From positions 2,046,001 through 2,110,000 of the forward strand of contig NZ_CP126269.1 in assembly GCF_003234445.2 (NCBI RefSeq): a DNA stretch of 64,000 nt, read 5' to 3'. A program made the translations under genes and the position numbers. This document shows, piece after piece, positions 25,553 to 33,535 of this stretch. Position 1 is the first letter of the stretch; each line of letters opens with the position of its first letter. A model generated the notes under the pieces. It searched no databases and was not told the DNA's origin. It worked only from the letters and a program-made list of their open reading frames with translations. The stretch comes from Curtobacterium sp. MCLR17_036 (GTDB lineage Bacteria; Actinomycetota; Actinomycetes; Actinomycetales; Microbacteriaceae).

Positions 25553-26548
25553 CTAGTCCTCGCCGTCCAGGATCGAGTCCGGCTGGATGTCGATGCGGGC
25601 ACCGGTGAGCTTCGCGGCGAGGCGGGCGTTCTGCCCCTCCTTGCCGATCGCGAGCGACAGCTGGTAGTCCGGCACGAGCGCGCGGACGGCCTTCGTCGAG
25701 GCGTCGAGCACGAACGCGCTCGTCACCTTGGCCGGCGACAGGGCGCTCGCGACGAACGAGGCGAGGTCGGACGACCAGTCGACGATGTCGATCTTCTCGG
25801 CGCCGAGCTCGTTCGTGACGGAGCGGACACGGGCACCGAGCTCACCGATGCACGCGCCCTTCGCGTTCACGCCGGGCTCGTTCGCCTTCACCGCGATCTT
25901 CGTGCGGTGACCGGCCTCACGCGCGAGCGAAGTGATCTCGACGACCCCGGACGCGATCTCCGGGACCTCGAGTGCGAACAGCTTGCGGACGAGACCCGGG
26001 TGCGTGCGGGACACCGTGATCTGCGGGCCCTTGTTGCCGCGGGCGACGCTCGTCACGTACACGCGGATGCGGGAGCCGTGCGTGTAGGACTCCCCCGGCA
26101 CCTGCTCCTCCGGCGGCAGGATCGCCTCGATCGTGCCGAGGTCGACGTGCACCATCTTCGGGTTCGGGCCCTGCTGGACCACACCCGCGACGATGTCGCC
26201 CTCCTTGCCGCGGAACTCGCCGAGGATCTTGTCGTCGCCGATGTCGCGCAGACGCTGGTTGATGACCTGCTTCGCCGCGAACGCCGCGATGCGGCCGAAG
26301 TCGCTCGGCTGGTCGACGGCTTCGCCGATGACGGCGCCCTCGTCGTCGAGCTCGGGGACGTAGACGCTGACCTCGCCGGACTTGCGGTCGAGCTCGACGC
26401 GCGACTGGGCGTGGGCCGGCTCGCCGTTCTCGTCGGCGTGCTTCTGGTAGGCGGTCAGGATGGCAGATTCGATGATCTGGACGAGCTCGTCGAACGGGAT
26501 CTCCCGCTCGCGCTCCATGAGTCGCAGGACTGCGAGATCGATCTTCAC
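25553..26548 (-). CDS. nusA: Transcription termination/antitermination protein NusA
   Basis: Binds RNA polymerase near the RNA exit and modulates pausing, termination and antitermination. 331 residues: N-terminal domain ([17 protein letters not shown]), S1 domain about 110-185 ([22 protein letters not shown]), then KH1 and KH2 ([40 protein letters not shown]). It lacks the acidic C-terminal repeats of E. coli NusA, as in other actinobacteria. The GTG follows GGAGG. It leads the nusA-ylxR-infB-rbfA run; rimP, usually just upstream, is absent. Confidence 0.97.
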
Positions 26549-26628
26549 CGAGGGCCTCCGTATTCAGATGAGTCGCTTCCGCGGGGTGGGACTGCGCAGA
26601 AGTCGGCCACAAGCGTACCCCAGAACCC

Positions 26629-26682
26629 CGGGACGGACGGGAGGCCCGGTGCCAGCTGGCACCGGGCCTCCCGTCCGTCCCG
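26629..26682 (-). terminator. 54-bp perfect palindrome terminating proS
   Basis: Bases 26629-26655 and 26656-26682 are exact reverse complements with no central spacer; the centre is CCAGCTGG. It starts 10 bases past the proS stop. The RNA hairpin would need to open a few central pairs for a loop, leaving a stem of about 25 bp. Confidence 0.85.
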
Positions 26683-26691
26683 TGGTTGCGT

Positions 26692-28443
26692 CTAGATCGC
26701 GCGGACCGCGTCGAGCAGCTCGGCGACCGGGACGTCGCGACGCTCGCCCGTGGCGCGGTCCCAGAGCTCGACGACGCCGTCTGCCGCGCCGCGACCGGCG
26801 ACGACGACGATCGGCATGCCGAGGAGTTCCGCGTCGCGGAGCTTCACGCCGGGCGAGACCTTCGGCCGGTCGTCGTACACGACCTCGAAGCGCTCGCCCT
26901 CGAGCTGCGCGACGATGTCCGTCGCCAGGTCGTAGGCGACCGCGTCCTTGCCGGTGGCGACCACGTGCACGTCGAAGGGCGCGACGTTCTTCGGCCAGAC
27001 CAGGCCCTTGTCGTCGTTGTGCGCCTCGGCGAGGATCGCCAGGATCCGCGTCACGCCGATCCCGTAGGAGCCCATCGTGACCGTGGCGAGCTTGCCGTTC
27101 TCGTCCTGCACCTTGAGGCCGAGCGCCTCGGCGTACTTGCGGCCGAGCTGGAAGACGTGGCCGATCTCCATGCCACGGGCCGTCTCGAGCGGGCCGGACC
27201 CGTCGGGTGCCGGGTCGCCGGCACGGACGTCGGACACCTCGGCGACGCCGTCCGCGACGAAGTCACGACCGGCGACCAGCCCGGAGACGTGCACGCCGCG
27301 CTCGTTGGCGCCCGTGACCCAGGCGGTGCCGTCGACCACGCGCGGGTCGACGAAGTAGCGCAGGCCCGTGGCGCTCTCCGCGCCGAGCACCTGCGGGCCG
27401 ATGTAGCCCTTCACGAGGCCCTTGTGCTTGCGGAAGTCGTCGTCGCCTGCGGCCTCGACCTCGGCGGGGGCGAAGGCCACCTCGGCACGCTTCAGGTCGA
27501 CGTCGCGGTCGCCGGGCAGCCCGACGACCACGACCTCGCGCGTGCCGTCGAGGTGGGTGAGCGCGAGGACGACGTTCTTCAGGGTGTCCGCGGCGGTCCA
27601 CGGCGCGCCTTCGCGCGGGGCGACCGCGTTCGCGTGCTCGACGAGGGAGTCGATCGTCGGGGTGTCCGACGCGGGGAGCAGCACCGGCTCCGGCTGCCCC
27701 TCGATCGGCAGGGCGTCGGGGACCGGGGTGACGTACGCCTCGACGTTCGCCGCGTAGCCGCCCGCGCTGCGGACGAAGGTGTCCTCGCCGACGCCGATCG
27801 GGTGCAGGAACTCCTCGGACTTCGAGCCGCCCATGGCCCCGGCGTCCGCCTTGACGATCACGTACTCGAGGCCGAGCCGGGCGAAGATCTTCTCGTACGC
27901 GTCGCGCATGACCTGGTAGCTGCGCTCGAGGCCCTCGTCGGAGATGTCGAACGAGTACGCGTCCTTCATCGTGAACTCGCGGCCGCGCAGGAGTCCGGCG
28001 CGGGGGCGGGCCTCGTCGCGGTACTTGTCCTGGATCTGGAACAGGGTGACGGGCAGGTCCTTGTACGACGAGTACAGGTCCTTCACCAGGAGCGCGAACA
28101 TCTCCTCGTGCGTCGGCGCGAGCAGGTAGTCGGCGCCCTTGCGGTCCTGCAGGCGGAACATGCCGTCGCCGTACTCGGTCCAGCGGTTCGTCGCCTCGTA
28201 CGGCTCGCGCGGCAGGAGCGCGGGGAGCAGGACCTCCTGCGCGCCGGCCGCCACCATCTCGTCGCGGATGATGCCCTCGATGCGCGCACGGACCCGCAGG
28301 CCGAGCGGCAGCCAGGCGAAGATGCCCGGCGACTGGCGACGGACGTACCCGGCGCGGACGAGCAGCTTGGCGCTCGTCACCTCGGCGTCGGAGGGGTCGT
28401 CGCGGAGGGTACGGAGGAAGAGATGCGAAAGCCGTGTGACCAC
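26692..28443 (-). CDS. proS: Prolyl-tRNA synthetase (bacterial type)
   Basis: Charges tRNA-Pro and hydrolyses Ala-tRNA-Pro in an inserted editing domain. 583 residues: class II core ([60 protein letters not shown]), the editing insert about 230-400, motif 3 in [20 protein letters not shown], and the anticodon-binding domain from about 480. A TAGGCT box ends 6 bases before the GTG and no ribosome-binding site is present, so the mRNA is probably leaderless. It is separated from ispG by the repeat array. Confidence 0.96.
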
Positions 28444-28449
28444 GGGGCA

Positions 28450-28455
28450 AGCCTA
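28450..28455 (-). promoter_or_regulatory. -10 box of leaderless proS
   Basis: TAGGCT on the minus strand, then TTGCCC, then the proS GTG. Confidence 0.6.
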
Positions 28456-28484
28456 GCGGCGACGGGGGGCGTGGTCGTGGCGGT

Positions 28485-28514
28485 GGTCGCGGTCGCGGTC
28501 GCGGTCGCGGTCGT
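28485..28514. repeat. Hexanucleotide (GGTCGC)n tract
   Basis: Four exact GGTCGC units plus one GGTCGT, just upstream of proS and before the first hairpin repeat. Confidence 0.8.
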
Positions 28515-28520
28515 GCCGGC

Positions 28521-28936
28521 CGGCACTTGGTGAGCAGAAGATGTCGAGTGGGCCTGCGCGACCCGACACCTTCTGCTCACGAAGGGGCGCGCAACGCCGG
28601 CGGGAGCGCGTGCCCGTCACCACGGTCGCGCCCATCGGCACTTCGCGAGCAGAAGATGTCGAGTGCGCCCGCGCGACCCGACACCTTCTGCTCACGAAGG
28701 GGCGCGCAGCACCGACGCGGGCGCGTGCTCGACGCCGAGGCGCTGGCCGTCGGCACTCGGTGAGCAGAAGATGTCGGTTGCGCCTGCGCGACCCAACACC
28801 TTCTGCTCACCAAAGGGCGCGCGGCGGCGAAGGTCACCGTGCGCGGCGCCGCGGTCGTGGCCGTCGGCACTTGGTGAGCAGAAGATGTCGAGTGCGCCCG
28901 CGCGACCCGACACCTTCTGCTCACGAAGGGGCGCGC
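28521..28936. repeat. Array of four 72-bp imperfect palindromes, period about 115 bp
   Basis: Cores at 28521-28592, 28636-28707, 28751-28822 and 28865-28936, all in the same orientation, separated by 42-43 bp of loosely related sequence. Each core has inverted arms of about 21 bp around GTGAGCAGAAG...CTTCTGCTCAC and a GC-rich centre. Copies 1 and 4 differ at about two positions; copy 3 is the most diverged. The conserved A/C mismatch in the arms would be a G-U pair in RNA read from the minus strand. The array fills the ispG-proS gap (527 bases), which has no gene. It resembles REPIN-type elements. Confidence 0.9.
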
Positions 28937-28970
28937 GGCCCCGCAGGCGCGGGCGCGCTCGACCCGTGCG

Positions 28971-30125
28971 CTACGGCGCGGTGATGACCTGGGGCGAGCC
29001 GAGTGCGGCCTCGGGGCCCATCTCGGCGGCGATGCGGTTCGCCTCGGCGATCAGGGTCGGGACGATCTCGTGCTCCGGCACGGTCTTGACGACCTCGCCC
29101 TTGACGAAGATCTGGCCCTTGCCGTTGCCGGACGCGACGCCGAGGTCGGCCTCGCGGGCCTCGCCCGGGCCGTTCACGACGCAGCCCATGACGGCGACGC
29201 GCAGCGGCACGGTCATGCCCTCGAGTCCCTTCGTCACGTCGTTCGCGAGCTGGTAGACGTCGACCTGCGCACGGCCGCAGCTCGGGCACGAGACGATCTC
29301 GAGCTTGCGCTCGCGCAGGTTGAGGGACTGCAGGATCTGCAGGCCGACCTTGACCTCCTGCGCGGGGGGCGCGGACAGGGACACGCGGATGGTGTCGCCG
29401 ATGCCCTCGGCGAGCAGGATGCCGAACGCGGTGGCGCTCTTGATCGTGCCCTGGAACTCCGGGCCGGCCTCGGTCACGCCGAGGTGCAGCGGCCAGTCGC
29501 CGGCGGCCGCGAGCTGCCGGTAGGCCTTCACCATGACGATGGGGTCGTTGTGCTTCACCGAGATCTTGAAGTCGTGGAAGTCGTGCTCCTCGAACAACGA
29601 GGCCTCCCACACGGCGGACTCGACGAGCGCCTCGGGCGTCGCCTTGCCGTACTTCTGCAGCAGGCTCGGCTCGAGGGAGCCGGCGTTCACGCCGATGCGC
29701 AGGGACACCCCGGCGTCCTTCGCGGCGCGGGCGATGGCACCGACCTGGTCGTCGAACTTGCGGATGTTGCCGGGGTTGACGCGGACCGCGGCACACCCGG
29801 CGTCGATGGCCTGGAAGACGTACTTCGGCTGGAAGTGGATGTCGGCGATCACCGGGATCTGCGACTTCTTCGCGATGATCGGCAGCGCGTCGGCGTCGTC
29901 CTGGCTCGGCACGGCCACCCGGACGATGTCGCAGCCGGAGGCGGTGAGCTCGGCGATCTGCTGCAGGGTCGCGTTGATGTTCGTCGTGGGGGTCGTGGTC
30001 ATCGACTGGACGGACACGGGCGCGTCGCCGCCGACGAGCACCTTGCCGACCCGGATCTGCCGCGACCTGCGACGGGGGGCGAGAGTTTCGGGCGTCTTGG
30101 GCATACCGAGGTTGACTGCGGGCAC
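28971..30125 (-). CDS. ispG: 4-hydroxy-3-methylbut-2-enyl-diphosphate synthase
   Basis: Reduces MEcPP to HMBPP in the MEP isoprenoid pathway using a 4Fe-4S cluster. The cluster ligands are in [10 protein letters not shown] near residue 280 and [10 protein letters not shown] near 315; [33 protein letters not shown] and GVTEAGPEF are family motifs. 384 residues. The GTG at 30125 lies 6 bases after a TAGAGT box (leaderless); MPKTPETL at 30104 is an alternative start. Its relatives dxr and rseP lie upstream but are separated by two unrelated genes. Confidence 0.97.
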
Positions 30126-30131
30126 GTCAGC

Positions 30132-30137
30132 ACTCTA
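30132..30137 (-). promoter_or_regulatory. -10 box of leaderless ispG
   Basis: TAGAGT on the minus strand, 6 bases before the GTG. Its first three bases are also the TAG stop codon of the isochorismatase gene. Confidence 0.6.
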
Positions 30138-30722
30138 CGCGCTCGCCCTGACGCTCCCCCGCACCACGTCCGCGGCCGCGTCGACGACGGTGATCAGCGG
30201 CGCGTAGAGGCGCATGACGTCGAGTGCCCGGTCGTGGTCGGCGTCGCTCGCGCCGGCGCAGGCGTCCGCCACGACGGTCACCGTCGCGCCGGCGTCCGCC
30301 GCCGCGAGCGCGGTCGACAGGACGCAGCAGTCCGTGGACACGCCCGTCAGCACGAGGTGCGGGTGGTCGCCGACGACGGCCTGGAGGCCCGTCCCCCACT
30401 TGCCGAACGTCGGTTCCGTCACGACGGGGTCGCCCCGGTCCGCAGCGGCCGACGCGAAGGGCTCGGTGAGTGCGTACAGCGGGTCGGCATCCGGGACGAG
30501 GGCGAAGGGCCAGTCGCGGTAGTACGGCACCCACGCACCCTCGGGCTGTGCCGGGGCGACGAACCGGGTGAACACGGTGCGGCCGGTGAACCGCGGCAGC
30601 AGGTGCTCGATCGCGTACCCGGCGTGGTCGTACCGCGGCGTCGCCCACGGGCTCTCGCCCGAGAAGACCTGCTGCATGTCGACGACCACGAGCCAGGCGT
30701 CCTCCGGCACGGTCGTGGTCAC
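30135..30722 (-). CDS. Isochorismatase-family cysteine hydrolase
   Basis: 195 residues. The family triad is visible: Asp in WLVVVDMQQVFSG, Lys in FGKWGTGLQ, and Cys in LTGVSTDCCVLSTALAAAD, preceded by the usual cis-peptide region. Family members hydrolyse amides or vinyl ethers (nicotinamide, carbamates, isochorismate); the coupling by GTGA overlap to an NCS1 nucleobase-type permease suggests a small imported amide, ureide or pyrimidine breakdown product as substrate. That is inference. Confidence 0.88.
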   Translation of the reverse strand: MTTTVPEDAWLVVVDMQQVFSGESPWATPRYDHAGYAIEHLLPRFTGRTVFTRFVAPAQPEGAWVPYYRDWPFALVPDADPLYALTEPFASAAADRGDPVVTEPTFGKWGTGLQAVVGDHPHLVLTGVSTDCCVLSTALAAADAGATVTVVADACAGASDADHDRALDVMRLYAPLITVVDAAADVVRGSVRASA

Positions 30723-32176
30723 CGCTGCGACTCCTGGCGACGCACGGCGCGACGGGCGGTGAGCAGCGTGCCGACGAACCCGACGACGAGCGCGACGAGG
30801 ACGCCGAGGTTCGCGTACGCCCAGGGGCCGCCGCGCCCACCGAGGCCGAACGGGCCGAGCAGGTACCCCTGCCACGACAGCCACACGGGCGACGAGAGCG
30901 TCACGAGTCCCCAGCCCAGCGCCGTGCCGACCAGGACCAGCGCGACGGCGCCCCACCGCACGTCGCCGTAGCGGCCGCGGCGGTCGTCGAGCTCCGCCTC
31001 GGCGTACGCCGTCCGTCGCAGCAGGACGTCGGCGACGAACACGCCCGCCCACGCGGCGACGGGGACCCCGAGCGTGATGAGGAACGCCTGGAACGGCTGC
31101 AGGAAGTCGGTGGCGAAGAAGACGACGTACACCGCGCCGACGACCATGACGACGCCGTCGACCCCGGCGGCGACCGGTCGCGGGATGCGGACGCCCGCGC
31201 TGAGCAGCGCGAGGCCCGACGAGTAGATGTCGAGCACGGCGCCACCGACGATGCCGAGGATCGCCACGACCGCGAAGGGGACGAGGAACCACACCGGCAG
31301 CACGGTGGTGAGCGCTCCGATCGGGTCGGCGCCGATCGCCGCCCGCAGGTCCGGCGACGACCCCGCGAGCACCAGGCCGACCACGACGAGCACCGCCGGG
31401 GCGAGCGCTCCGCCGAACGTCGTCCAGCCGACCACCCCGCGGGTCGAGGCGGTCCGCGGCAGGTAGCGCGAGTAGTCGGCCGCGGCGTTCACCCAGCCGA
31501 GGCCGAACCCGGTCATCACGAGCACGAGCGCCCCGATCACCTGCTGGGCGCTGCCCGAGGGCAGGGCGCCGAGCGCCGCCGTGTCGATCGTCGGCGCCGC
31601 GAGGACCACGTAGAGGACGGTCAGCACGGCCGTGACGACGGTGATCACCGTCTGCAGGCGCATGATGACGTCGAAGCCCGCGACGCCGGCACCGACCACG
31701 AGCGCGGCCACGACGACGAGCGCGACGAGCTTGGTGAGGACCCCGCCGTCCCAGCCGAGCTCGGTGAACACCGTCGAGGTGGCGAGGACCGCCAGGGCCG
31801 CCAGCGCGGTCTCCCACCCGACCGTGAGCACCCAGCTGAGGAACGAGGGCAGGCGGTTGCCACGCACGCCGAACGCCGCGCGGCTCAGCACCATCGTGGG
31901 CGCTGAGCCCCGCTTGCCGGCGATCGCGACGACGCCGCAGAGCAGGAACGAGAACGCGACGCCGACGACGGAGACGACGGTCGCCTGGACGAGCGAGATG
32001 CCGAAGTCGAGCACGAACGACCCGTAGGCGAGGCCGAGCACGGAGACGTTCGCCGCGAACCACGGCCAGAACAGCCCGCGCGGGGTGCCCTTGCGGTCGA
32101 CCTCGGCGATGACGTCGAGGCCCTGCCGTTCGACGGCGCGGACCTCGGGCGTGGGCTTGGCCGGCACGGTGCTCAT
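30719..32176 (-). CDS. NCS1-family nucleobase/cation symporter (purine-cytosine permease type)
   Basis: 485 residues with about 12 transmembrane helices. The N-terminal RGLFWPWFAANVSVLGLAYG and the helix-8 region GWVNAAADYSRYLPR fit the NCS1 family, which imports cytosine, purines, uracil, allantoin, hydantoins or thiamine. Exact substrate not readable. The ATG is preceded at 6 bases by TACGCT, so it has its own leaderless promoter and forms a two-gene unit with the isochorismatase. Confidence 0.9.
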   Translation of the reverse strand: MSTVPAKPTPEVRAVERQGLDVIAEVDRKGTPRGLFWPWFAANVSVLGLAYGSFVLDFGISLVQATVVSVVGVAFSFLLCGVVAIAGKRGSAPTMVLSRAAFGVRGNRLPSFLSWVLTVGWETALAALAVLATSTVFTELGWDGGVLTKLVALVVVAALVVGAGVAGFDVIMRLQTVITVVTAVLTVLYVVLAAPTIDTAALGALPSGSAQQVIGALVLVMTGFGLGWVNAAADYSRYLPRTASTRGVVGWTTFGGALAPAVLVVVGLVLAGSSPDLRAAIGADPIGALTTVLPVWFLVPFAVVAILGIVGGAVLDIYSSGLALLSAGVRIPRPVAAGVDGVVMVVGAVYVVFFATDFLQPFQAFLITLGVPVAAWAGVFVADVLLRRTAYAEAELDDRRGRYGDVRWGAVALVLVGTALGWGLVTLSSPVWLSWQGYLLGPFGLGGRGGPWAYANLGVLVALVVGFVGTLLTARRAVRRQESQR

Positions 32177-32182
32177 GCGCCG

Positions 32183-32188
32183 AGCGTA
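32183..32188 (-). promoter_or_regulatory. -10 box of the leaderless permease gene
   Basis: TACGCT on the minus strand, 6 bases before the ATG, just past the rseP stop. Confidence 0.6.
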
Positions 32189-32200
32189 GTGCGCGGCCGA

Positions 32201-33535
32201 CTACCCGAACAGGTCCACGGGGCGCACGAGGTCGGCGTAGATGAGCAGCGCGCTCATGCCCGCCAGCAGCACCACGACCACCATCGTCAGGGGCATCGTC
32301 TTCGCCAGGTCGATGGGACCGGGGTCGGCCTTGCCGACGAGCGTGAACGCACGTCGCTTGATCGCCTCCCACAGCGCGCCCGCGATGTGTCCGCCGTCGA
32401 GCGGCAGCAGCGGCAACATGTTCAGCACGAACAGGCCGATGTTCAGCGACGCGAGCAGGCCGAGGATCGTGTACGCCTTGTCGACCACCGGGACGCCGCT
32501 CATCGACGAGACCTCGCCGATGGCACGGCCGACACCGACCACGGACACCGGGCTGTCCTGCGAGCGTTCCTGGGCGCCGAACGCCGCGTTCCACACGGCG
32601 ACGAGCCGCTGCGGCAGGTCGATGATGAGGTGCGCCGACGCCGCGATCTGCGCGCCGGTCGCCGGCAGGACCTCGGTCGGCGACTGCCGCACCAGGGACT
32701 GCCCGATGCTGACGCCGACCACGCCGACCTGCTGGGTCTTCGTGGTGCCGTCGGCGTTCTCGACAGCCTTGCCCTCGGCGTCGTACACGTCGCGGGTGGC
32801 CGTCGTCGGCGTGATCTCGAGCGTCTTCCGGGCACCGTCGCGCTCGACGACGACCGTCACCTGCTCACCGGCCGATCGCTGGAACACCTCGGAGACGCGG
32901 GCGATGGTGGGGTCCTGCTCGCCGTTCACCGACAGCACGACGTCACCGGACACGATGCCCGCCTGCTTCGCGGGCGACTCCGCGTCACCCGGGGCGCACT
33001 CGGTGGCCTGGCTGGTGGGCAACACACAGTCGACGCTGGAAGTGAACGTCGTCGTCGGCGCGCCGAACCCGCACAGGAGCACGCCGAACAGCACGATGCC
33101 GATGACGAGGTTCATCGCCGGTCCGGCGACCATCACGATGATGCGCTTCCACGGGGTGAGCCGGTAGAACGCCCGGGAGTCGTCGCCACCCGAGTCCGCG
33201 ATCTGCTCGGCGCTGGCCTGGCGGGCGTCCTGCACGAAGGCGCCGTACATGCCGGTGTTCGTGATCGCGTTCGCCCGGCCCGAGGCACGCGGCTTGAGCA
33301 TGCCGACCATCGAGATGTACCCGCCGAGCAGGATCGGTCGGATGCCGTACTCGGTCTCACCGCGGCGGAAGGACCAGATCGCCTTGCCGAACCCGAGCGA
33401 GTACTGCGTCACCTTGACGTTGAACAGCTTCGCGAAGGACAGGTGCCCCAGCTCGTGGAGCCCGATCGAGACCAGCAGGCCGACGATGAAGACGACCACG
33501 CCGAGGACGAAGAGCAGGACGGATTCGACGGTCAC
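32201..33535 (-). CDS. rseP: RseP/Rip1-type site-2 intramembrane zinc metalloprotease
   Basis: Cleaves transmembrane substrates such as anti-sigma factors inside the membrane. Seen: HELGH zinc motif in the first helix (SIGLHELGHLSFAK), PDZ domain about residues 190-270 (KQAGIVSGDVVLSVNGEQD), and the third zinc ligand in LPLLPLDGGHIAG near residue 385. 444 residues from the GTG at 33535, which lies 6 bases after a TACGCT box and gives the usual short N-terminus MTVESVLLFVLG; an ATG at 33562 would add 9 residues. The dxr-rseP-ispG order of actinobacteria is broken by two genes. Confidence 0.94.
   Translation of the reverse strand: MTVESVLLFVLGVVVFIVGLLVSIGLHELGHLSFAKLFNVKVTQYSLGFGKAIWSFRRGETEYGIRPILLGGYISMVGMLKPRASGRANAITNTGMYGAFVQDARQASAEQIADSGGDDSRAFYRLTPWKRIIVMVAGPAMNLVIGIVLFGVLLCGFGAPTTTFTSSVDCVLPTSQATECAPGDAESPAKQAGIVSGDVVLSVNGEQDPTIARVSEVFQRSAGEQVTVVVERDGARKTLEITPTTATRDVYDAEGKAVENADGTTKTQQVGVVGVSIGQSLVRQSPTEVLPATGAQIAASAHLIIDLPQRLVAVWNAAFGAQERSQDSPVSVVGVGRAIGEVSSMSGVPVVDKAYTILGLLASLNIGLFVLNMLPLLPLDGGHIAGALWEAIKRRAFTLVGKADPGPIDLAKTMPLTMVVVVLLAGMSALLIYADLVRPVDLFG

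What the first reader, a model, noticed from the sequence alone, without database searches (positions are those of the whole stretch)
28521..28936. REPIN-like array of four 72-bp palindromic cores between ispG and proS
Four 72-bp cores at a strikingly regular 114-115 bp spacing, all in one orientation, fill an intergenic region. Each core is an inverted repeat of about 21 bp around GTGAGCAGAAG with a conserved GC-rich centre; cores are near-identical while the 42-43 bp between them are loosely related. A recurring A/C mismatch in the arms becomes a G-U pair in minus-strand RNA, suggesting selection on RNA structure in the ispG 3' region, or alternatively a mobile REPIN family that amplified in tandem.
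Basis: partly seen in the sequence, partly recalled or inferred. Interest (0 to 1): 0.75.

Follow-up and report, generated by a model that had tools for sequence, protein, structure and literature searches.

The report
Genome-wide hairpin repeats at gene ends
The four near-identical hairpins after the ispG gene belong to a large family of fixed-length palindromes scattered through Curtobacterium genomes, mostly where two genes end facing each other; no REPIN-type transposase was found with them, and they seem to be kept by selection, probably as two-way gene-end barriers, though that function is untested.

Summary
The array is real: four copies of a 63-bp palindrome, spaced 115, 115 and 114 bp, between ispG and proS. 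A fixed-spacing two-arm pattern matches 118 places in the 3.64-Mb genome, against 0 for the reversed control; I examined 104 copies in 59 clusters. Relatives occur in 45 of 60 genomes of the genus, nine of them with only 1-4 hits, and look-alikes in three other Microbacteriaceae genera.

It fails tested REPIN features: no Y1 (RAYT-type) transposase in any of 60 genus genomes, no GTAG/CGTC tag, arms that barely fold alone. Evidence on movement is mixed.

Two arm blocks (GTGAGCAG, GTCGGGT) are nearly invariant, while the 11-nt loop varies freely in sequence but hardly in length (278 of 281 arm pairs). Between two related genomes the arm blocks change about 4.4 times more slowly than flanks (4/300 vs 99/1706 sites). 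Clusters favour convergent genes (35 of 58 vs 26 of 153 gaps). Best reading: a REP-class family, without RAYT, under selection, inferred to be a two-way 3'-end barrier, tandemly amplified here.

The parts
28524..28586 (.). palindrome copy 1 (outer stem, GTGAGCAG block, variable 5 bp, GTCG block, 11-nt loop, mirrored arm)
28639..28701 (.). palindrome copy 2
28754..28816 (.). palindrome copy 3 (least like the first, 70% over the tandem unit)
28868..28930 (.). palindrome copy 4, 40 bp after the ispG stop codon
28508..28966 (.). tandem unit of 115/114 bp (palindrome plus about 52 bp of flank), copies 2-4 being 85, 70 and 78% identical to the first
28971..30125 (-). ispG (gcpE), upstream gene whose 3' end faces the array
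26692..28443 (-). proS-type aminoacyl-tRNA synthetase gene, downstream; a CTAGGCT motif lies just before its GTG start and in 29 of 29 relatives' gaps (promoter reading is inference)

Best explanation
The array is a local tandem amplification of one member of a Curtobacterium family of dispersed 63-bp palindromes, belonging to the broad class of repetitive extragenic palindromes but without a RAYT. The family is old and largely inherited in place. Two arm blocks in inverted repeat at fixed spacing are under purifying selection, and the loop sequence is free. The most likely role is a bidirectional 3'-end element: the extruded or transcribed hairpin, possibly bound by a factor reading the arm blocks, ends or blocks transcription, or protects mRNA 3' ends, on both sides of a convergent gene pair. 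Here it would insulate the proS promoter from ispG read-through. Arrays arise by local duplication of palindrome plus flank. Shown: dispersal, geometry, slow arms, covariation, gene context, retention at orthologous sites. Inferred: the 3'-end function, the promoter and any binding factor.
For: 118 matches in the own genome vs 0 for the reversed pattern. Convergent context in 35 of 58 own clusters vs 26 of 153 gaps in long stretches (p about 4e-9); other genomes 99 of 183 (p about 1e-12); divergent context depleted (4 of 58 and 12 of 183 vs 37 of 153). Arm blocks A+B 4/300 substitutions vs flanks 99/1706 and loop 8/110 in 10 G001/G033 pairs. Arm spacing exact in 278 of 281 pairs although loop identity between loci is 0.40 against 0.37 expected from composition. 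Four of the five variable columns pair at 75-84% Watson-Crick vs 34-51% expected over 306 distinct copies. Two-sided Watson-Crick replacements at orthologous sites (5 over 17 pairs). A similar architecture in another genus (G149): 6 of 7 copies between convergent genes, for one no left gene was called.
Against: There is no U-tract: no terminator call at the array (that scan allows loops of 3-8 only) and 0 of 552 element tails have 5 T in 8. The ispG-proS gap is only 28-60 bp in 9 of 29 relatives, and only 2 of 29 carry the family there, so it is not required. G-U is not favoured over A.C on the transcribed strand across the genus, which speaks against selection on the RNA hairpin alone. In the 17 pairs one-sided changes between Watson-Crick and mismatch (20) outnumber the 5 two-sided ones, so broken pairs are tolerated. 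No expression data were available. The gene calls behind the context counts are home-made.
Confidence: 0.53

Rival explanations
1. Selfish or relic mobile palindromes (MITE-like, mobilised by an unidentified non-Y1 enzyme) with no host function. Arm identity is kept by gene conversion between copies and by template switching within the palindrome; the 3'-end location only reflects where insertions are tolerated.
For: Eight cluster pairs of the own genome share at least 10 of 11 loop bases, against a mean of 1.9 (maximum 7) in 60 permutations; one of them is this array with the cluster at 1,578,638. The permutation ignores position preferences in the loop, so part of the excess may be compositional. 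Multi-base two-arm switches with a nearly unchanged loop fit template switching, a mechanism described in PMC8794818 (outline, abstract and opening of the introduction seen). Mixed copies carry arms of two subtypes (e.g. 489362, 1435918).
Against: The only exact loop match between own-genome loci is a segmental duplication; the identical pair seen in G033 also lies in a 694-bp duplication. No clean empty site or target duplication in the two G001/G033 differences that I aligned. Slow arms with a loop at the flank rate. Conversion of arms only, at fixed length, is hard to explain without selection.
Confidence: 0.27
2. Binding site for an unknown Microbacteriaceae DNA-binding protein (dimer or tetramer across the fixed 38-bp arm spacing), acting as a roadblock between converging RNA polymerases or as a nucleoid-organising site.
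For: Fixed spacing with a free loop; nearly invariant blocks in both arms; no consistent RNA-strand bias; GCAG..GTCG blocks and the same spacing recur in other genera; multi-copy arrays lie further from dnaA than singles (median 1.25 vs 0.59 Mb, p = 0.004).
Against: The variable stem columns covary, which a DNA-bound dimer alone does not need. A second fixed-length hairpin family with unrelated arms sits in similar places. No candidate protein was identified or sought.
Confidence: 0.15
3. True REPINs mobilised by a RAYT, as proposed by the first reader.
For: High copy number, intergenic palindromes, and ordered tandem clusters including flanks, as described for REPIN clusters in PMC3116915 (passages seen).
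Against: No Y1 transposase match in any of 60 genus genomes (the profile rings in 5 of 14 control genomes, E. coli among them). No GTAG/CGTC tag. The arms are not REPs that fold on their own.
Confidence: 0.04
4. One-off tandem duplication with no wider family.
For: The spacers between the palindromes are alike only within this array as far as compared.
Against: 118 matches in the genome and relatives in 45 of 60 genus genomes.
Confidence: 0.01

Closest known systems
Repetitive extragenic palindromes (GTAG and CGTC REP superfamilies; PMC3733652: abstract, passages and sections 15-16 seen)
   Same: High copy, extragenic, palindromic, mostly at 3' ends between convergent or co-directional genes, compensatory stem changes, clusters with flanks reiterated in tandem; CGTC REPs also lack a dedicated transposase.
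   Different: Stem about 26 bp rather than 6-13 bp, no unpaired GTAG/CGTC tag, constant 11-nt loop of free sequence, and found in an actinobacterial genus (the word Actinobacteria does not occur in that paper's main text).
REPINs of Pseudomonas (PMC3116915, passages seen)
   Same: Dispersed hairpin units, tandem clusters of near-identical units with flanks, less conserved centre.
   Different: REPINs are pairs of inverted REPs tied to a RAYT; here each arm is not a REP and no Y1 transposase was found.
Bidirectional intrinsic terminators (PMC5381666, abstract seen)
   Same: Hairpins at gene ends with compensatory changes.
   Different: No U-tract (0 of 552 tails); the arm sequence is conserved across unrelated loci; fixed total length; no consistent G-U preference on the transcribed strand.
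Curtobacterium family B hairpin GACGGGAGGC-N20-GCCTCCCGTC (found here)
   Same: Dispersed, convergent 3' ends, fixed length (74 of 80 paired arms at distance 30; 41 of 121 left arms unpaired), covarying stem.
   Different: Unrelated arm sequence and almost no loop.

Membership tests
REPIN/RAYT system | RAYT (Y1 HUH transposase, PF01797) in the genome | tested here: not met
   0 in own genome (E<=1, 10 of 14 controls ring); 0 of 60 genus genomes (E<=0.001, 5 of 14 controls ring)
REPIN/RAYT system | two inverted REPs, each a palindrome, per unit | tested here: not met
   four single-arm strings fold at 0 to -3.2 kcal/mol; whole unit -34 to -49
REPIN/RAYT system | signs of recent movement (identical copies at different loci, empty sites) | tested here: inconclusive
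   one exact loop match, a segmental duplication; 8 cluster pairs at 10 or more of 11 loop bases vs 1.9 permuted; no clean empty site in the two cases aligned
REP (GTAG/CGTC) superfamilies | unpaired GTAG or CGTC tag at one end | tested here: not met
   alignment A1 of 70 copies shows no such end motif
REP class in the broad sense | many copies, extragenic, palindromic, 3'-end location | tested here: met
   118 matches; 58 of 59 own clusters outside called genes, 35 convergent
Intrinsic terminator | GC-rich hairpin followed by a U-tract | tested here: not met
   0 of 552 element tails have 5 T in 8; 0 sites at 26500-29100 in a scan limited to loops of 3-8
Rho-independent or roadblock 3'-end barrier | causes 3' ends or stops read-through in vivo | not testable with these tools
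   no RNA data available
Known RNA family (Rfam) | match over the gathering score | tested here: not met
   13 hits at 26400-29200 up to E = 1, none reaching its gathering score

The most novel reading that the evidence does not exclude
The palindromes are fixed-geometry landing sites for an unidentified Microbacteriaceae factor that reads GTGAGCAG/GTCGGGT in inverted repeat and makes a two-way transcription barrier between converging genes: a dedicated bacterial roadblock terminator, dosed by tandem copy number.
Probability: 0.15. Interest if true: 0.75.

Novelty: new variant of a known kind. Interest (0 to 1): 0.45.

Why it matters
It is a large palindrome family in an actinobacterial genus, not described in the open-licence papers I searched, that persists without the transposase thought to drive REPs and REPINs. 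Free loops beside slow arms at orthologous sites make it a good system for separating selfish spread, template-switch repair and host selection. It also makes the question of how convergent genes are insulated in GC-rich actinobacteria testable, since the genome studied holds about a hundred natural replicates.

Tried and rejected
REPIN reading: rejected for lack of Y1 transposase, tag and REP-like arms. RNA-strand selection from the A/C-to-G-U argument: tested genus-wide and not supported. Empty-site or target-duplication search between two related genomes: no clean case. One gap had unrelated sequence in place of the element; in the other the partner held a long unrelated insert. Phage origin: the Curtobacterium-type pattern has 0 hits in viral contigs and the generic pattern 2 (not followed up). 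Rfam: nothing reached a gathering score. ORFs inside the array as genes: no Pfam match for the two tested.

The control shows a modest excess of near matches, so I lowered the best explanation from 0.55 to 0.53 and raised the mobile rival from 0.25 to 0.27.

First backgrounds for gene context came from gaps next to elements, which is biased against convergent gaps. I replaced them with gaps of the window and ten 20-kb stretches. The first ortholog counts (17 hand-chosen pairs; both directions) contain pattern-chosen partners or the same pairs twice. The 10-pair one-direction count is the one to use; it leaves out four copies of one array locus and pairs whose flanks did not both map.

To be read with care: 118 counts matches with up to 3 mismatches. 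Many loci behind the spacing count were brought in by fixed-spacing patterns; in the loci fetched after the single-arm search (20 loci and the window) 45 of 45 arm pairs within 15-60 bp had one spacing.

Full report
WHAT IS THERE. The window holds four copies of a palindrome between ispG and proS, both genes on the minus strand. GAGCAG starts at 28532, 28647, 28762 and 28876. In register the unit is 63 bp: outer stem, GTGAGCAG, five variable positions, GTCGGGT (GTCGAGT or GTCGGTT here), an 11-nt loop, and the mirrored arm. The tandem unit, palindrome plus about 52 bp, is 115/115/114 bp; copies 2-4 are 85, 70 and 78% identical to the first. As minus-strand RNA the copies fold at -39 to -49 kcal/mol (z -7.6 to -9.4); as plus-strand RNA at -34 to -36 (z -5.4 to -6.9). 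The last palindrome ends 40 bp after the ispG stop. A CTAGGCT motif just before the proS GTG is present in 29 of 29 relatives' gaps; that it is a promoter is my inference.

A GENOME-WIDE FAMILY. In the own genome (one contig, 3,635,022 bases) the arm word with one mismatch has 62 forward and 50 reverse hits against 3 and 1 for the reversed control. A fixed-spacing two-arm pattern (up to 3 mismatches) has 118 matches, control 0. I examined 104 copies in 59 clusters: 103 at up to 3 mismatches and one at 4. With a longer consensus the first 70 copies are cleanly separated from background (0-5 mismatches, then none until 10). With the looser pattern, counts fall from 13 at one mismatch to 1 at two and 0 at three before the background rises. 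Seventeen clusters are arrays of 2-5 copies; periods range from 91 to 282 bp and differ between arrays, although 112-116 bp recurs in several. Arrays therefore seem to form by local duplication with flank, as described for ordered REPIN clusters in PMC3116915 (passages). Arrays lie further from dnaA (at base 427) than single copies: median 1.25 vs 0.59 Mb, p = 0.004.

DISTRIBUTION. A covariance model from 70 copies finds matches in 45 of 60 genomes of the genus, own included: 36 with 10 or more hits (capped at 83, both strands counted) and nine with 1-4. Outside the genus, the shortened exact pattern hits 3 of 117 genomes of the family (two genera), with no control hit in the 120 genomes searched. 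At order level it hits only the own genome among 198, that is 0 of 184 genomes of other families. With up to 3 mismatches a third genus (G149) has seven copies of a GGAGCAGAGATGGTCG-type palindrome with the same spacing. Six of those seven lie between convergent genes as called with a Curtobacterium codon model; for one no left gene was called. Many genomes have one or two control hits, so its single hits mean nothing.

ANATOMY. Over 306 distinct 63-mers the arm blocks are almost invariant. Four of the five variable columns and some outer columns pair more often than independence predicts (column 14: 78% vs 51%; 16: 84% vs 50%; 17: 75% vs 34%; 18: 84% vs 44%). The pair count on the 70-copy alignment agrees in part: cells paired 85.5% vs 82.7% in shuffles (0 of 500 as high), cells changed on both sides 90 vs 67.5 (1 of 500), but the number of pairs with two-sided changes (10 vs 10.1) and of further pair types (34 vs 34) does not exceed shuffles. 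Between 53 own-genome cluster representatives mean pairwise identity is 0.97 for GTGAGCAG, 0.89 for GTCGGGT, 0.53 for the variable columns, 0.51 for the outer stem and 0.40 for the loop, the last against 0.37 expected from composition. Eight cluster pairs still share at least 10 of 11 loop bases (permuted mean 1.9, 0 of 60 runs as many), among them this array and the cluster at 1,578,638; some old copying between loci is therefore possible. Of 281 exact arm pairs within 120 bp, 278 have the same spacing, two differ by one base, and one is a mispairing across neighbours (279 of 282 before merging strands); 23 of 305 left arms had no exact partner. Many of these loci were brought in by fixed-spacing patterns, but after the single-arm search 45 of 45 pairs also had one spacing.

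INHERITANCE AND CONSTRAINT. Of 28 G001 elements tested against G033, 13 are present at the orthologous place, 4 absent or rearranged, and 11 undecided, mostly because the matching G033 region was not fetched; in the other direction 8, 5 and 16 of 29 (two of the nine 'absent' cases are elements of 95-97% identity with an indel). In 10 unique pairs the substitutions are: block A 1/160, block B 3/140, variable 9/100, loop 8/110, outer 7/117, flank at 10-100 bp 99/1706. Blocks A+B against flank gives p = 0.0005, against loop p = 0.004. Against simple retention: one site has unrelated sequence instead of the element, at another the partner carries a long insert, and two sites appear to hold elements of another subtype with another loop (581258 and 3645337 in G001). 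In 17 hand-chosen pairs there are 5 two-sided Watson-Crick replacements but 20 one-sided changes between Watson-Crick and mismatch. The clearest switch is AGAGG/CCTCT in G001 and G033 but AATGG/CCATT in G005, with one loop base changed. This fits selection on pairing, and equally template switching, a mechanism described in PMC8794818 (outline, abstract and opening of the introduction).

GENE CONTEXT. With a home-made codon-usage gene caller, own-genome clusters are 35 convergent, 19 co-directional, 4 divergent and 1 inside a called gene. Clusters in other loci fetched by then are 99 convergent, 72 co-directional and 12 divergent, with 9 left out (2 in genes, 7 without both neighbours). The fairer background, all gaps over 40 bp in the window and ten 20-kb stretches, is 26 convergent and 37 divergent of 153. 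Convergent enrichment: p about 4e-9 (own) and 1e-12 (others). The median distance from a stop codon is 52 bp (own) and 33 bp (others) in convergent pairs. At ispG-proS itself only 2 of 29 relatives carry the family (G016 two variant copies, G031 one), and 9 of 29 gaps are 60 bp or shorter.

MECHANISM. The 3'-end location, two-sided symmetry and constraint point to a bidirectional 3'-end element. It is not a textbook intrinsic terminator: 0 of 552 tails have a T-run. If only the RNA hairpin mattered, G-U should beat A.C on the transcribed strand; it does in the own genome (40 vs 23, array copies not independent) but not elsewhere (65 vs 77). Constant spacing around a free loop and nearly invariant blocks suggest that something reads the arms in a fixed geometry. 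I therefore favour a hairpin or bound-factor barrier (inferred) and keep a DNA-bound roadblock as the novel case. A second, unrelated, equally fixed-length hairpin family at convergent ends (74 of 80 paired arms at one distance, 15 of 19 convergent in own loci) favours a general 3'-end role over a special factor.

RELATION TO WHAT IS KNOWN. REPs in the sense of PMC3733652 (abstract, passages, sections 15-16) share the 3'-end location, compensatory stem changes and clustering, and the CGTC group also lacks a transposase. They have 6-13 bp stems and a GTAG or CGTC tag, absent here. REPIN membership fails on transposase, tag and arm structure; movement is undecided. My searches for such a family in Curtobacterium, Microbacteriaceae or Actinobacteria (open-licence papers only, judged from titles and abstract starts; one search listed 20 of 31) found none; subscription papers were not searched.

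Noticed in passing
window 26624-26687: Nearly perfect palindrome with 32-nt arms between nusA and proS (family B, GACGGGAGGC...GCCTCCCGTC). In the fetched own loci there are 20 such hairpins, 15 of the 19 with two called neighbours in convergent gaps; over all loci 74 of 80 paired arms have the same spacing.
   Followed up: partly
ispG-proS gap in relatives (L061-L090): The same gap varies from 28 to 900 bp in 29 genus genomes (a 30th contig ends inside it); several longer gaps hold other palindromes, including CTCGCACGGTGCGAG-type repeats.
   Followed up: no
G000:C1 3241331 and 3329433 (L060, L267): Identical loop and right flank but different left flank: a segmental duplication whose left breakpoint falls in the palindrome arm.
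   Followed up: no
G000:C1 2384946-2385383 (L054): Family B hairpins interleave with family A palindromes in one array, so the duplicated unit carries both.
   Followed up: no
G033 197479 and 279455 (L229, L230): Two identical copies 82 kb apart; they lie in a 694-bp stretch of 93.5% identity, so a larger duplication rather than movement of the palindrome alone.
   Followed up: partly
window 30135-32594 (-): 819-aa ORF with a C-terminal isochorismatase domain only; the rest is unassigned and may be an over-long reading frame.
   Followed up: no
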